Positions 20,257-25,241 of a stretch of 48,087 nucleotides of DNA are shown piece after piece. The DNA lies in assembly GCA_937139565.1 (NCBI GenBank), contig CAKZQH010000054.1, positions 1-48,087 on the forward strand. The letters run 5' to 3'. The position numbers and the translations under genes are program-made. The notes beneath the pieces are model-generated. The model was not told the origin of the DNA, made no database searches, and worked only from the letters and a program-made list of their open reading frames with translations. This stretch comes from an uncultured Nitrospiraceae bacterium (GTDB lineage: Bacteria; Nitrospirota; Thermodesulfovibrionia; Thermodesulfovibrionales; Thermodesulfovibrionaceae). The stretch's first letter is position 1, and each line of letters opens with the position of its first letter.

Positions 20257-20907
20257 ATGAGATTAGTATTCTTGGGTGCTCCCGGAGCAGGCAAAGGAAC
20301 TCAGGCAAAAAGACTTGTTGAGAAATATGGAATACCTCAGATATCAACAGGAGATTTACTTAGAGCAGCTGTAGCAGCAGGAACTCCACTTGGTAAAGAA
20401 GCAAAGGCATATATGGATAGAGGAGAGCTTGTTCCTGACCAAGTAGTTCTTGGAATGGTCAAGGAGAGACTTTCGCAGGATGACTGCAAAAAAGGATTTA
20501 TTCTAGATGGTTTTCCGAGAAATGTAGCGCAGGCAGAGGCTCTTGACAAAATGCTTGCAGAGATGAACATGTCTTTACAAATGGCATTAAACTTAGATGT
20601 TCCTTTTGACGATCTGATGAAAAGGCTTACCGGTAGAAGGACCTGCAAAGCCTGTGGTCAAATGTATAATGTTTACTATTCGCCATCAAAGGTAGATGGC
20701 AAGTGTGATAAATGCGGTGGAGAACTTTTCCAAAGAGATGACGATAAGGAAGAGACAATAAGAAAGAGGCTTGAGGTATATAGGGCACAAACAGAGCCAT
20801 TGATAGATTATTATTCTAAAAAGGGAATATTGAAAAGCGTAGCAGGCACAGGTAATATAGATGAAATATTTAATAATATCTGTGCAATAGTAGAAAAAAC
20901 TAATTAA
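20257..20907 (+). CDS. adk: Adenylate kinase (zinc-lid type)
   Basis: This 216-residue enzyme interconverts ATP + AMP and 2 ADP. The P-loop is GAPGAGKGTQ at 8-17, GFPRN is the AMP-binding segment, and the LID carries four cysteines (130, 133, 150, 153) that bind structural zinc, as in Gram-positive and many thermophilic enzymes. It lies 17 bases before sat. In sulfate reduction the APS reductase step releases AMP, so an adenylate kinase is needed to return AMP to ADP; the gene position suggests this copy serves that purpose, besides general metabolism. Confidence 0.97.
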   Translation: MRLVFLGAPGAGKGTQAKRLVEKYGIPQISTGDLLRAAVAAGTPLGKEAKAYMDRGELVPDQVVLGMVKERLSQDDCKKGFILDGFPRNVAQAEALDKMLAEMNMSLQMALNLDVPFDDLMKRLTGRRTCKACGQMYNVYYSPSKVDGKCDKCGGELFQRDDDKEETIRKRLEVYRAQTEPLIDYYSKKGILKSVAGTGNIDEIFNNICAIVEKTN

Positions 20908-20924: not shown

Positions 20925-22310
20925 ATGCCGGAAGTAAGAATTAAAACTCTGCCTCCACCTCATGGTGGGAAGCTGGTTGACAGGGTTGTCAGAGACCCAG
21001 AGATGGCAAGGAAGTTAATGCAGAAATGTTCAGCCGTTTATGACATCAAGCCTACTCTTTTTAAGGGTAATCCTGTAAGAAATGTCTACAGAGAAATTAT
21101 GTCAGTTTGTTATGGTTTCTTCAGTCCAGTTGAAGGCTCAATGACAAAGGCTGAACTCGAGAGTGTTCTTGAAAAAAGAAGACTTTTAAGTGGATGGGTG
21201 TTCCCCTATCCAATTCTTTTTGATATTTCTGAAGAAGATTTCAAGAAATTAGGTGTTGGAGCTGGTGATTGGCTCCTTTTAAGATTGAAAGGCGAACCCT
21301 TTGCAATCCTTGAGATTGAAGAGGTCTATGAGATTGTTCCAGGAGATGTGGCAGTTAGAACTTTTGGAACTCCAGAGAAAAATCCAGAAGTTGTTAAGGT
21401 TCCATTTGATCAGAAGCATACAGGATACAACATCTATTGTTCATTAAATCCAATTATTCTTGCAGGAAAATACACCATAATTAATGAGCCAAAACTGAGA
21501 GAGCCCTTTAACAGATTTTGGTATCCACCAAAAAGAGCAAGGGAAGAGTTTGAAAAGAGAGGGTGGACAACGGTTATTGCCCATCAGACAAGAAATGTGC
21601 CACACACTGGGCATGAAGCATTAATGAAGAATGCTGCATACATCGGTGATGTAAAACCATGTGATGGTATTGTGGTAAATGCAATAGTTGGTGCAAAAAG
21701 AATTGGTGATTTCCCAGATGAAGCCATTGTGGAAGGTCATGAAATGGTTCATCTTGCAGGATACATCAAGCCAGATCGTCATCTTGTAACTTTTACACTT
21801 TGGGATATGAGATATGGAAATCCAATTGAATCCCTAATTCATGCTGTAATCAGGCAGAACATGGGAATTTCCTTCCACATGTTTGGAAGAGATCATGCTG
21901 CACTTGGTGAATACTATGATATCTTTGCTACACAGATTCTTTGGTCTAAGGGAATTCCAAGTTTTGGCTTTGAAGCCCCACCTTATGCAGTAGATGGTGG
22001 ATTCTATATAAGACCACAGAACATTGAAGAGTTCTGGTTCTGCCCGAAATGCAAAGAGTTTGCATATTCTGCAAACTGCTCTCATAAAGGTATATACTCA
22101 AGATACTCAGGTAGCTTCATTAGAGGTCTTATCAATGAAGGTGTAATGCCTCCACCTGAGATATACAGACCAGAAGTTTACAAGGTAGTTGTAAAATGGT
22201 GGCAGAAGTTCGGATATCCATTCAATAACGAGAAGTACTTAAAAGAGAGAGAGGAGAGATTAGAGGTTGATCTCCCTCACATGGAACTTCCAGCTCACTT
22301 AAAAAAATAA
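20925..22310 (+). CDS. sat: Dissimilatory ATP sulfurylase
   Basis: This 461-residue enzyme makes adenosine 5'-phosphosulfate (APS) and pyrophosphate from sulfate and ATP, the activation step of sulfate respiration. The active-site motif is QTRNVPHTGH at 221-230, and GRDHAALGEYY is the second nucleotide-binding segment. A PUA-like N-terminal domain precedes the catalytic domain. CPKCKEFAYSANCSH in the C-terminal part is a Cys/His cluster like the zinc site reported in thermophilic bacterial ATP sulfurylases. There is no APS-kinase-like extension. A strong GGAGGGAAGGT ribosome site precedes the ATG. Confidence 0.97.
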   Translation: MPEVRIKTLPPPHGGKLVDRVVRDPEMARKLMQKCSAVYDIKPTLFKGNPVRNVYREIMSVCYGFFSPVEGSMTKAELESVLEKRRLLSGWVFPYPILFDISEEDFKKLGVGAGDWLLLRLKGEPFAILEIEEVYEIVPGDVAVRTFGTPEKNPEVVKVPFDQKHTGYNIYCSLNPIILAGKYTIINEPKLREPFNRFWYPPKRAREEFEKRGWTTVIAHQTRNVPHTGHEALMKNAAYIGDVKPCDGIVVNAIVGAKRIGDFPDEAIVEGHEMVHLAGYIKPDRHLVTFTLWDMRYGNPIESLIHAVIRQNMGISFHMFGRDHAALGEYYDIFATQILWSKGIPSFGFEAPPYAVDGGFYIRPQNIEEFWFCPKCKEFAYSANCSHKGIYSRYSGSFIRGLINEGVMPPPEIYRPEVYKVVVKWWQKFGYPFNNEKYLKEREERLEVDLPHMELPAHLKK

Positions 22311-22322
22311 AGGAGGTGAATA

Positions 22323-22727
22323 ATGGCTAAGTTTTTAGGCGTAATAATTGATGAGAAAAGAATGGCAGCCATAAAGGGTACTCCCCTTGAGGAAAAAGTT
22401 GAATCAATCTTTGGTGGAGCCTTAAGAAGGTTGGTTATCGAAGTGCCTGATGACCTTGGTCAGAAGGTCATTGATCAATTTACAAAGGCAAGATTCGATG
22501 CAAGAGGATTCATAGAGGAAACACCAGCAGCCTTTAAAAGGGCAATTTTTAAGAGAATTGCCGAGATGAAAGAGTTATCAGCAGCAGTAGTAGAAAAGGT
22601 CCTTGCTGAAGATCTTGAAAAGGTAAAGGAAGAGGCTGCAAAGGAAGACAAAGAGCTTCCTGTTCCAGATATTGACATAAGTGATGTACTGGAATTACAG
22701 AAAAATCCAGTGCAAAAACCAGCATAA
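22323..22727 (+). CDS. Unknown protein in the sulfate-activation operon
   Basis: A 134-residue soluble protein with no cysteine, signal peptide or membrane helix. The first 80 residues read as a small alpha/beta domain (FLGVIIDEKRMAAI, RRLVIEVPDDLGQKVIDQF), then come Ala/Glu/Lys-rich helices and an acidic, Pro-containing tail (LPVPDIDISDVLEL). It starts 12 bases after sat and ends 25 before aprB, each with its own AAGGAGG-type ribosome site, so it must be co-expressed with them. The lack of Cys argues against electron transfer; a structural or regulatory partner of Sat or AprBA is possible. The family is not recognised. Confidence 0.85.
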   Translation: MAKFLGVIIDEKRMAAIKGTPLEEKVESIFGGALRRLVIEVPDDLGQKVIDQFTKARFDARGFIEETPAAFKRAIFKRIAEMKELSAAVVEKVLAEDLEKVKEEAAKEDKELPVPDIDISDVLELQKNPVQKPA

Positions 22728-22752: not shown

Positions 22753-23181
22753 ATGCCAAGTTTTGTAATGGTTGAAAAGTGCGATGGCTGCAAAGCCCAG
22801 GACAAGACAGCTTGTCAGTACATCTGTCCTAATGACCTTATGACTCTCGACAGAGAGAAAATGAAGGCCTATAACCAGGAGCCAGATCAGTGCTGGGAGT
22901 GCTACAACTGCGTAAAAATCTGCCCTCAGCAGGCAATTGAGATCAGAGGTTATGCAGATTTCTTCCCTCTCGGCGCCAGTGTTATTCCAATGAGAGGCCA
23001 GGATGCAATCATGTGGACAGTCAAATTCAGAAACGGTTCACTTAAGAGATTCAAATTCCCAATAAGGCTCACTCCTGAGGGATATTGGAAGGCTGAGAAC
23101 ATTTACGAAGGATTACCTGAGCCTGATTATTCAAAGATTAAAGGTCCTGGCTACTTTAACTATGAAGCCAGAAAAGAGTAA
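22753..23181 (+). CDS. aprB: Adenylylsulfate reductase, beta subunit
   Basis: This 142-residue iron-sulfur subunit carries electrons to the FAD of AprA. Cysteines 10, 13, 21 and 25 with 47, 50, 53 and 57 form two [4Fe-4S] sites in the ferredoxin fold (CDGC, CQYIC, CWECYNCVKIC). The longer loop between Cys13 and Cys21 is characteristic of AprB. After residue 60 a beta-sheet part and an extended tail follow, which in known structures wraps around AprA; the tail is somewhat shorter than in Desulfovibrio. Ribosome site AAAGGAGG. Confidence 0.96.
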   Translation: MPSFVMVEKCDGCKAQDKTACQYICPNDLMTLDREKMKAYNQEPDQCWECYNCVKICPQQAIEIRGYADFFPLGASVIPMRGQDAIMWTVKFRNGSLKRFKFPIRLTPEGYWKAENIYEGLPEPDYSKIKGPGYFNYEARKE

Positions 23182-23205: not shown

Positions 23206-25194
23206 ATGGAAAAAGAGACTTGCACTTTTTCATATTGTCAAAGACCAGAAGTCGTAGAAGTTGATACTGACTTTCTTATAATCGGCGGTGGTATGGCTGC
23301 TTGCGGTGCTGCATTTGAAGCATGCAGATGGGCAACACCAAAGGGAATTAAAGTAACAATGGTTGATAAGGCAGCCACAGACCGTTCCGGCGCAGTTGCA
23401 ATGGGTCTCAGTGCTATTAATACCTACATTGGAGAGAATAAGGTCGAGGACTATGTAAGATATGTTCGTGCAGACCTTATGGGAATTATCAGAGAGGATT
23501 TAGTATTCGACCTTGGCAGACACGTTGACAACTCCGTTCACATGTTTGAGGAGTGGGGTCTTCCTATTTGGAAAAAGAGCGATGATGGATGGTCACTTGA
23601 TGGCTTCCAGGCAAGAGATCAGGGCAAGCCAAAACTCAAAGATGGTGGAGTCCCATGCCGTTCAGGAAAATGGCAGATAATGATCAACGGTGAATCCTAT
23701 AAGGTCATCGTTGCTGAGGCTGGAAAAGCAGCCCTAGAATACAACAGAAAGGCTCTCAATATCCCACAGAACCTCTTTGAGAGAGTTTTCATCGTAAAAC
23801 TTCTCAAAGATGCAAAAGAGCCTAACAGAGTTGCTGGTGCAATTGGTTTCAGCGTGAGAGAGAATAAGGTATTTCTCTTTAAAGCAAAAGCAATTCTCTG
23901 CGCTGCAGGTGGTGCAGTTAATGTATTTAGACCAAGATCAGCTCGTGAAGGACAGGGTAGAGCATGGTATCCTGTTTGGAACTCTGGTTCCGGATACTAT
24001 CTCGGAATGTCAGTCGGTGCAGAACTCACAATGATGGAAAACAGATTCGTACCAGCAAGATTTAAAGATGGATACGGACCTGTTGGCGCATGGTTCCTAT
24101 TCTTTAAGGCAAAGGCAACAGATTCACTTGGTGCAGATTATTGCGCAAAAGACACACCAGAGTTCAAGGAAGCAGTTGAGAAATACGGAAAATGGGCAGA
24201 GGCCCTCGGAACTGCTATCAGAAACCATCTCATGATGCAGGCAATGAAGAAAGGTAGAGGTCCAATCCTTATGAATACCCATACTGCAATACAAGAACTT
24301 GCAAAGCAGATGGATCCAAAGAGACTTAAACACCTTGAAGCCGAAGCATGGGAAGACTTCCTTGACATGTGTATATCCCAGGCAGGCCTCTGGGCAGCCA
24401 ACAATGTTGAACCAGATAAGGTTCCATCCGAAATCATGCCAACCGAGCCTTATCTCCTTGGTTCCCATGCTGGTTGCGCTGGCTTCTGGGTAAGCGGACC
24501 CGGAGATATTCCTGGAGCACCTGCTGAGTGGTTCTGGGGCTACAACAGAATGAGCACTGTAACAGGCCTCTTCATGGCAGGTGACATTGTTGGAGCATCA
24601 GGACACAAATTCTCCTCTGGTTCCCATGCTGAGGGTAGAATTGCAGCAAAAGCAGCAATTGCATTTATCCTTGACAACGCTGGCTACACACCAACAATAG
24701 CTGAGGATATAAATGCTCTTGTTGCAGAGCTATACCTGCCATTTGAGATTTACGAGAAATACAAGACATACTCTACTGATCCTAATGTTAACCCATACTA
24801 CATTAGACCAGCTATGTATCAGGCAAGACTTCAGAAGATTGCTGACGAATACTTCGGAGGAGTAAGCACCTGGTACATGACCTCTAAGACCATGATAGAG
24901 GAAGGACTGAGAAAACTTCAGATGCTCAAAGAGGATGCTGCAAGATTAGCAGCTTCTAACCTCCATGAGCTTCTCCGTTGCTGGGAGAACTATCACAGAG
25001 CTCTCTCACTTGAAGCTCATGCAAGACACATCCTCTTCAGAGAAGAGTCCAGATATCCTGGTTACTACTACAGAGGCGACTTTGACTTTGTTGATGACAA
25101 CAACTGGCGTGCATTCGTCAACTCAGTCTATGATCCAGCAACAGACACATTTACACTTAAGAAAGTTCCTTACGTTCAGATCATTCCTGATTAA
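23206..25194 (+). CDS. aprA: Adenylylsulfate reductase, alpha subunit
   Basis: This 662-residue FAD protein reduces APS to sulfite and AMP in the cytoplasm. The dinucleotide fold is DFLIIGGGMAACGAAFEA near residue 20, RSGAVAMGLSAIN is the flavin loop, and GHKFSSGSHAEGRIAAKAA is the C-terminal FAD contact. Long conserved Trp/Tyr/Arg-rich stretches (RAWYPVWNSGSGYYLGMS and others) fit the dissimilatory group rather than succinate dehydrogenase. Codon use is strongly biased and C-ending codons are more frequent than in neighbours, as expected for a very highly expressed protein. Ribosome site GAAGGAGG. Confidence 0.97.
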   Translation: MEKETCTFSYCQRPEVVEVDTDFLIIGGGMAACGAAFEACRWATPKGIKVTMVDKAATDRSGAVAMGLSAINTYIGENKVEDYVRYVRADLMGIIREDLVFDLGRHVDNSVHMFEEWGLPIWKKSDDGWSLDGFQARDQGKPKLKDGGVPCRSGKWQIMINGESYKVIVAEAGKAALEYNRKALNIPQNLFERVFIVKLLKDAKEPNRVAGAIGFSVRENKVFLFKAKAILCAAGGAVNVFRPRSAREGQGRAWYPVWNSGSGYYLGMSVGAELTMMENRFVPARFKDGYGPVGAWFLFFKAKATDSLGADYCAKDTPEFKEAVEKYGKWAEALGTAIRNHLMMQAMKKGRGPILMNTHTAIQELAKQMDPKRLKHLEAEAWEDFLDMCISQAGLWAANNVEPDKVPSEIMPTEPYLLGSHAGCAGFWVSGPGDIPGAPAEWFWGYNRMSTVTGLFMAGDIVGASGHKFSSGSHAEGRIAAKAAIAFILDNAGYTPTIAEDINALVAELYLPFEIYEKYKTYSTDPNVNPYYIRPAMYQARLQKIADEYFGGVSTWYMTSKTMIEEGLRKLQMLKEDAARLAASNLHELLRCWENYHRALSLEAHARHILFREESRYPGYYYRGDFDFVDDNNWRAFVNSVYDPATDTFTLKKVPYVQIIPD

Positions 25195-25209
25195 TATGAG
25201 AGTAGCAGG

Positions 25210-25241
25210 GGGAGGGAGCAATCTCCCTCCCTTTATATTCT
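25210..25241 (+). terminator. Hairpin with T-rich tail after aprA
   Basis: GGGAGGGAG/CTCCCTCCC (9-bp perfect stem, CAAT loop) is followed by TTTATATTCTT. This is a good intrinsic terminator or a 3' processing/stability hairpin that ends the sat-aprBA message and lowers read-through into qmoA. Confidence 0.8.

What the first reader, a model, noticed from the sequence alone, without database searches (positions are those of the whole stretch)
22323..22727. Unrecognised Cys-free gene inside sat-aprBA
A 134-residue soluble protein lies tightly between sat and aprB with strong ribosome sites on all three genes, so it should be made at levels near those of the core enzymes. It has no redox cysteine or membrane helix. 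A high-abundance unknown in the core sulfate-reduction operon may organise Sat with AprBA, channel APS or regulate one of them.
Basis: partly seen in the sequence, partly recalled or inferred. Interest (0 to 1): 0.6.

Follow-up and report, generated by a model that had tools for sequence, protein, structure and literature searches.

The report
DUF6955, partner of one ATP-sulfurylase lineage
The small gene between sat and aprB belongs to a known but uncharacterised protein family (DUF6955) that follows one particular lineage of the sulfate-activating enzyme Sat almost everywhere, even in mycobacteria that have no APS reductase, so it is most likely a dedicated partner of Sat rather than a link between Sat and APS reductase.

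Summary
In detail: a real, strongly conserved 134-aa gene (dN/dS at most 0.07) lies between sat and aprB, with AGGAGG sites on all the genes. It is not unrecognised. It is Pfam PF22271/DUF6955 (2.5e-27), function unknown, and corresponds to ORF2 of the published Archaeoglobus fulgidus Sat-ORF2-AprAB operon. The Sat-AprBA idea fails as the general role. In 80 named loci from bacteria and archaea, DUF6955 directly follows sat in 78, but aprB follows it in only 29 of 75 that can be judged. In 148 Mycobacterium genomes the same 18 carry Sat and DUF6955 (cysC-sat-DUF6955 in the two read) and none of the 18 shows AprB. DUF6955 tracks one deep Sat clade, which carries a conserved 34-42-residue C-terminal extension; genomes with two Sats have it only behind that type. 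DUF6955 distances correlate with Sat (partial r 0.70), not AprA (0.03). In Thermodesulfovibrio both Sat and DUF6955 have diverged sharply while AprBA has not. Best reading: a small accessory or regulatory partner of this Sat lineage. Direct binding is inferred; a read-through AlphaFold model did not show confident docking. No PDB fold match was found.

The parts
22323..22727 (+). DUF6955 gene, 134 aa, the reported ORF
   Evidence: Pfam PF22271 2.5e-27; dN/dS 0.007-0.070; confident core model, pLDDT about 96
22335..22604 (+). DUF6955 core domain, residues 5-94
   Evidence: Pfam match residues 5-94; invariant R13, G32, D59, I64, P68 over 82 relatives
22656..22724 (+). C-terminal tail of DUF6955 (residues 112-134), predicted flexible yet 98% conserved in the genus; likely a short binding motif
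   Evidence: conservation 0.98 vs 0.91 core and 0.71 helix before it; pLDDT 52-58
20925..22310 (+). sat, ATP sulfurylase of the DUF6955-linked lineage
   Evidence: NF003166/TIGR00339; Sat tree
22182..22307 (+). C-terminal extension of Sat (42 residues after the RPEV motif), mark of the DUF6955-linked Sat clade; candidate docking site (inferred)
   Evidence: 34-42 residues in DUF+ Sats, 8-29 in DUF- Sats
22311..22322 (+). sat-DUF6955 gap with ribosome site AGGAGG
22753..23181 (+). aprB
   Evidence: TIGR02060 1.1e-61
23206..25194 (+). aprA
   Evidence: TIGR02061 932 bits
25207..25234 (+). terminator-like hairpin between aprA and qmoA (12 pairs), possible end of the sat-DUF6955-aprBA unit

Best explanation
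The protein is a dedicated small partner of one lineage of homo-oligomeric ATP sulfurylase (Sat). SHOWN: it belongs to DUF6955, its gene sits directly behind sat of that lineage, it comes and goes with that Sat, and it diverges with it. INFERRED: it binds Sat directly as an accessory or regulatory subunit, probably at the conserved C-terminal extension next to Sat domain III, the mobile and dimer-forming domain. There it would stabilise the dimer or tune opening and closing of the active site, and so Sat activity, whatever consumes the APS afterwards (AprBA, APS kinase or a PAPS-reductase-type enzyme). In Thermodesulfovibrio an extra conserved flexible tail (LPVPDIDISDVLELQKNPVQKPA) would add a second contact.
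For: Adjacency: sat directly upstream in 78 of 80 loci from many bacterial and archaeal phyla, aprB directly downstream in 29 of 75 uncensored. Reciprocal tests not selected on DUF6955: Nitrospirota, 23 of 23 intact DUF-type Sats have it and none of the genomes with only other Sats do, apart from a contig-edge fragment in G092; class of G306, 24 of 24; Mycobacterium, 18 of 18 vs 0 of 130. No AprB in those 18 Mycobacterium genomes (the same search rings in 12 of 23 genomes). Two genomes with both Sat types have DUF6955 only behind its type, away from aprBA-qmoABC. Distances: DUF-Sat r 0.72 (0.94 with the fast clade), partial 0.70 given AprA; DUF-AprA given Sat 0.03; AprA-AprB control 0.74. Joint divergence of Sat and DUF but not AprBA in Thermodesulfovibrio. 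Clade-specific Sat extension.
Against: No direct evidence of binding. AlphaFold on the Sat-DUF6955 read-through gave pTM 0.74 and left the tail disordered, so no confident docking; without a Sat-only control and with Sat as a monomer this is inconclusive. Some family members sit away from sat, two of them beside dsrAB, and one (G366) lies behind the other Sat type. From memory, recombinant A. fulgidus Sat is active as a homodimer, so the partner is not needed for basic catalysis.
Confidence: 0.6

Rival explanations
1. Assembly or stability factor: DUF6955 helps this Sat lineage fold or dimerise but is not a lasting subunit and does not regulate the finished enzyme.
For: Same genomic evidence as the best explanation; small soluble protein translated directly after Sat; Sat-specific co-divergence.
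Against: Nothing specific; a strong SD on its own gene suggests more product than a catalytic chaperone needs. No known chaperone fold found.
Confidence: 0.17
2. Product handler: DUF6955 binds APS or pyrophosphate released by Sat (shuttle or buffer) and passes it to whichever enzyme follows, without forming a Sat complex.
For: Works with AprBA, APS kinase and PAPS-reductase-type neighbours; conserved charged residues R13, K35, D59, E65, K72.
Against: An APS carrier should also co-vary with the consumer, but DUF-AprA partial r is 0.03; no nucleotide-binding motif or known fold; absent from many sat-aprBA organisms with the other Sat.
Confidence: 0.1
3. One reading: DUF6955 organises Sat with AprBA or channels APS between them.
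For: Window gene order sat-DUF6955-aprB-aprA; the genus-specific tail could still touch AprBA.
Against: Present without AprB in 18 Mycobacterium genomes, with cysC-sat-DUF in the two loci read, and in Dehalococcoidia L031 and Aerophobetes L075; aprB adjacent in only 29 of 75 loci; over 100 Nitrospirota genomes with AprB lack it; no co-divergence with AprA.
Confidence: 0.06
4. DUF6955 is a regulator of gene expression or an unrelated passenger kept in the operon.
For: No direct biochemistry exists; family members also occur near dsrAB or alone.
Against: A passenger would not survive repeated operon rearrangement beside one Sat type in many phyla with dN/dS about 0.05; no DNA-binding domain.
Confidence: 0.07

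Closest known systems
Pfam PF22271, DUF6955 (family of unknown function)
   Same: Full-length profile match well above cut-off (95.3 bits against 27); adjacent to sat like most members examined here
   Different: Window member is a divergent genus-level form (about 26% identical to typical members) with a 23-residue conserved C-terminal tail and no Cys
ORF2 of the Archaeoglobus fulgidus Sat-ORF2-AprAB operon (AF1667-AF1670, PMC3949148)
   Same: Same gene order; Archaeoglobales loci L096 and L097 read sat-DUF6955-aprB-aprA
   Different: The A. fulgidus gene itself was not fetched here; no function was assigned to ORF2 in the passages read
CysDN ATP sulfurylase (catalytic CysD with regulatory GTPase CysN)
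   Same: Idea of a second protein attached to a sulfate-activating enzyme
   Different: DUF6955 is about 100-134 aa, not a GTPase, and goes with Sat (PF01747), not CysD
AprM of Allochromatium sat-aprMBA (PMC3779200)
   Same: Extra gene lying between sat and aprBA
   Different: AprM is a membrane protein tied to APS reductase; DUF6955 is soluble and tied to Sat

Membership tests
DUF6955 (PF22271) | Match over Pfam's curated gathering score across the domain | tested here: met
   95.3 bits vs 27, residues 5-94, profile 3-91 of 91
DUF6955 (PF22271) | Family-wide conserved residues (R13, G32, D59, I64, P68 in window numbering) | tested here: met
   Invariant in 82 aligned members, window included
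Sat-linked branch of DUF6955 | Gene directly downstream of a sat of the extension-bearing clade | tested here: met
   12 nt after sat; Sat in the DUF clade with a 42-aa extension
ATP sulfurylase accessory subunit (functional claim) | Stable physical complex with Sat | tested here: inconclusive
   AF2 of the window read-through: pTM 0.74, tail disordered, no Sat-only control; needs biochemistry
CysDN-type heteromeric ATP sulfurylase | Second subunit is a GTPase of the EF-Tu type | tested here: not met
   No GTPase or P-loop family in Pfam or NCBIfam; 134 aa
Sat-AprBA scaffold or APS channel | Occurs only where Sat and AprBA both occur | tested here: not met
   18 Mycobacterium genomes with Sat and DUF6955, AprB not detected; L031 and L075 genomes likewise
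Known PDB fold | Significant structural match in the PDB | tested here: inconclusive
   Foldseek best E 0.78; VIA-align best Z 2.3 over 69 residues

The most novel reading that the evidence does not exclude
A deep lineage of ATP sulfurylase used by many sulfate reducers, archaea and some mycobacteria is in life a two-protein enzyme, Sat plus DUF6955 docked on a Sat-specific C-terminal extension, a heteromeric class that was overlooked because recombinant Sat is studied alone.
Probability: 0.35. Interest if true: 0.7.

Novelty: new variant of a known kind. Interest (0 to 1): 0.52.

Why it matters
Sat catalyses the first, ATP-consuming step of sulfate respiration. If one of its main lineages has a dedicated partner, models of how sulfate reducers control that investment are missing a component, and a domain of unknown function gains a concrete, testable target. 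The mycobacterial cysC-sat-DUF6955 locus shows the pair kept outside sulfate respiration, and the split into DUF6955-linked and DUF6955-free Sats gives a simple genomic marker for two kinds of sulfate activation, sometimes in one cell.

Tried and rejected
AprBA bridge or APS channel: rejected as the general role. Redox or metal role: none of the invariant residues is Cys, and a Cys-based metallochaperone for the Sat zinc site is unlikely. Fold search: no PDB relative by sequence (the profile hits CagY at 3e-4 over 46 residues only, taken as chance) or by structure. The read-through AF2 model as a docking test gave no confident interface. The in-frame TAG seen inside AprB of several relatives is simply the true stop before the aprA ribosome site. 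The ascertainment worry, that DUF+ Sats were found by searching DUF6955, was met by reciprocal Sat-first searches in three groups. Two apparent exceptions, G042 and G034, are Sats cut by contig ends. Literature: no paper in the held library names DUF6955, and no Thermodesulfovibrio proteome table could be used (one search lists papers only; supplements were not available).

Full report
Observation. The ORF at 22323-22727 (+) is real: 134 aa, ATG start, no Cys, 12 nt behind sat and 25 nt before aprB, with AGGAGG-type ribosome sites before sat, the ORF, aprB and aprA. Between congeners dN is 0.006-0.051 and dS 0.5-1.06, ratio 0.007-0.070, so it is under strong purifying selection as a protein. 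It occurs once in its own genome.

Identity. It matches Pfam PF22271, DUF6955, over residues 5-94 at 95.3 bits (cut-off 27). NCBIfam has no model for it. No held paper mentions DUF6955, but a transcriptome paper on Archaeoglobus fulgidus speaks of the 'Sat-ORF2-AprAB operon' and reports sat and aprAB, AF1667-AF1670, as highly expressed at all times (PMC3949148). Two Archaeoglobales loci here read sat-DUF6955-aprB-aprA (L096, L097), so ORF2 is almost certainly this family; AF1668 itself was not fetched. The gene is therefore known, without a function.

Distribution. A scan of one genome per species with an alignment of the family gave 80 named loci: Nitrospirota, Desulfobacterota and Deltaproteobacteria, Chloroflexota, Bacillota (Desulfofundulus, Desulfovirgula), Archaeoglobales, Thermoplasmatota, KSB1, Armatimonadota and Mycobacterium. 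sat lies directly upstream in 78 of 80; the exceptions are a contig start (L091) and L075, where a sulfatase and a PAPS-reductase-domain gene stand between sat and DUF6955. aprB follows directly in only 29 of the 75 loci that can be judged. Operon orders differ (sat-DUF-aprBA-qmoABC, aprBA-sat-DUF-qmoABC, aprBA-qmoABC-sat-DUF, lone sat-DUF), yet sat-DUF6955 stays together.

Where AprBA is missing. In Mycobacterium the two loci read are cysC (APS kinase, PF01583)-sat-DUF6955. Of 148 Mycobacterium genomes, 18 have Sat and exactly the same 18 have DUF6955, next to each other (Fisher p 1.6e-23 treating genomes as independent, which they are not). None of the 18 shows AprB (that call carries the tool's warning that nothing rang, but the same search rings in 12 of 23 genomes). 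Dehalococcoidia L031 is sulfotransferase-cysC-sat-DUF6955, and Aerophobetes L075 has a PAPS-reductase-domain gene; neither genome shows AprB, though both are draft assemblies. A bridge to AprBA cannot be the general function.

Two kinds of Sat. Sat trees of 107 and 108 sequences fall on a very long central branch into a DUF6955-accompanied clade and a DUF6955-free clade. Because the first set was found through DUF6955, I searched the other way. In 296 Nitrospirota genomes, 183 have Sat, 130 AprB and only 24 DUF6955. A DUF-type Sat query gives 25 genomes above 300 bits, of which 23 have DUF6955 and two (G042, G034) have a Sat cut by the contig end; no genome with only the other Sat has it, apart from G092, where a DUF6955 fragment lies near a contig edge. 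In 56 genomes of another class, all 24 intact DUF-type Sats carry it directly downstream. Two genomes hold both types: the DUF-free sat heads aprBA-qmoABC, and the DUF-type sat plus DUF6955 stands apart (L167, L168). A Desulforudis MAG has both in tandem (L092). The one exception found, G366, has DUF6955 after a DUF-free-type Sat that is 94% identical to one in a Nitrospirota MAG, which could be a replacement or a binning error.

Co-evolution. In 30 non-redundant loci holding all four genes, DUF-Sat distance correlation is 0.94, DUF-AprA -0.16 and AprA-AprB 0.72. Without the fast Thermodesulfovibrio clade (25 loci) the values are 0.72, 0.23 and 0.74; partial DUF-Sat given AprA is 0.70, DUF-AprA given Sat 0.03. 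Thermodesulfovibrio Sat and DUF6955 are only 44% and 26% identical to the others (69% and 65% among the others), while AprB and AprA are not diverged (74% and 69% against 74% and 63%). The pair has accelerated together, leaving AprBA behind.

Anatomy. Sats of the DUF clade carry 34-42 residues after the RPEV motif, with a conserved KYGxGSPFVTxxYLxxRxPVF; DUF-free Sats carry 8-29 unrelated residues. Domain III, to which this extension belongs, forms the dimer interface in the nearest solved relative, the Methanothermococcus enzyme (PMC10322725). DUF6955 is predicted with confidence (core pLDDT about 96) as a small alpha/beta domain without a PDB match by Foldseek (best E 0.78) or VIA-align (best Z 2.3). 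In Thermodesulfovibrio it has a 23-residue tail that is 98% conserved although predicted flexible, against 71% for the helix before it, as expected of a short binding motif.

A test that did not help. sat and the ORF are in the same frame, so the window DNA with TAA and TGA read as residues gives a Sat-GRRSI-DUF6955 chain. AlphaFold2 with 31 paired and 77 single rows gave pTM 0.74 with the tail still disordered: no confident docking. There is no Sat-only control, and Sat was modelled as a monomer, so this is inconclusive.

Interpretation. Shown: family membership, tight linkage to one Sat lineage, independence from AprBA, joint divergence. Inferred: direct binding, the docking site and the regulatory effect. 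The most likely function is an accessory or regulatory partner of this Sat lineage; the nearest rival is an assembly factor. From memory (not tested here), recombinant A. fulgidus Sat is an active homodimer, which argues for tuning or stabilising rather than catalysis.

Noticed in passing
L253 (4418-4741), L254 (4324-4647): A second, weaker branch of DUF6955 (57-86 bits) occurs in Desulfobacterota away from sat; in these two loci it lies near dsrAB with TPR genes, with a conserved C-terminal KLYNPL.GK..R motif. The family may have a second partner in sulfite reduction.
   Followed up: partly
L248 (4474-4797), L251 (1521-1847), L252 (4045-4371): Further lone DUF6955 paralogues with no sat or apr gene nearby.
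   Followed up: no
window 20257-20907: An adenylate kinase gene ends 17 nt before sat, so AMP recycling may be co-expressed with sulfate activation.
   Followed up: no
window 25207-25234: Strong terminator-like hairpin between aprA and qmoA, suggesting sat-DUF6955-aprBA is transcribed partly apart from qmoABC.
   Followed up: no
L100, L103; Mycobacterium genomes: 18 of 148 Mycobacterium genomes carry a Sat together with DUF6955; the two loci read are cysC-sat-DUF6955. Why they need it is unclear.
   Followed up: partly
L167, L168, L092: Genomes with two Sat enzymes of the two deep types, one with and one without DUF6955, in the same cell.
   Followed up: partly
L256 (G366): DUF6955 after a Sat of the other type that is 94% identical to one in a Nitrospirota MAG; gene replacement, transfer or binning error.
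   Followed up: partly
L243 (G336, 1348-2124): Truncated DUF-type Sat of about 259 aa in a genome without DUF6955; partner and enzyme may have been lost together.
   Followed up: no
AprB of L149, L161, L164, L169: The TAG reported inside PF12139 matches is the ordinary stop codon before the aprA ribosome site, not recoding.
   Followed up: yes
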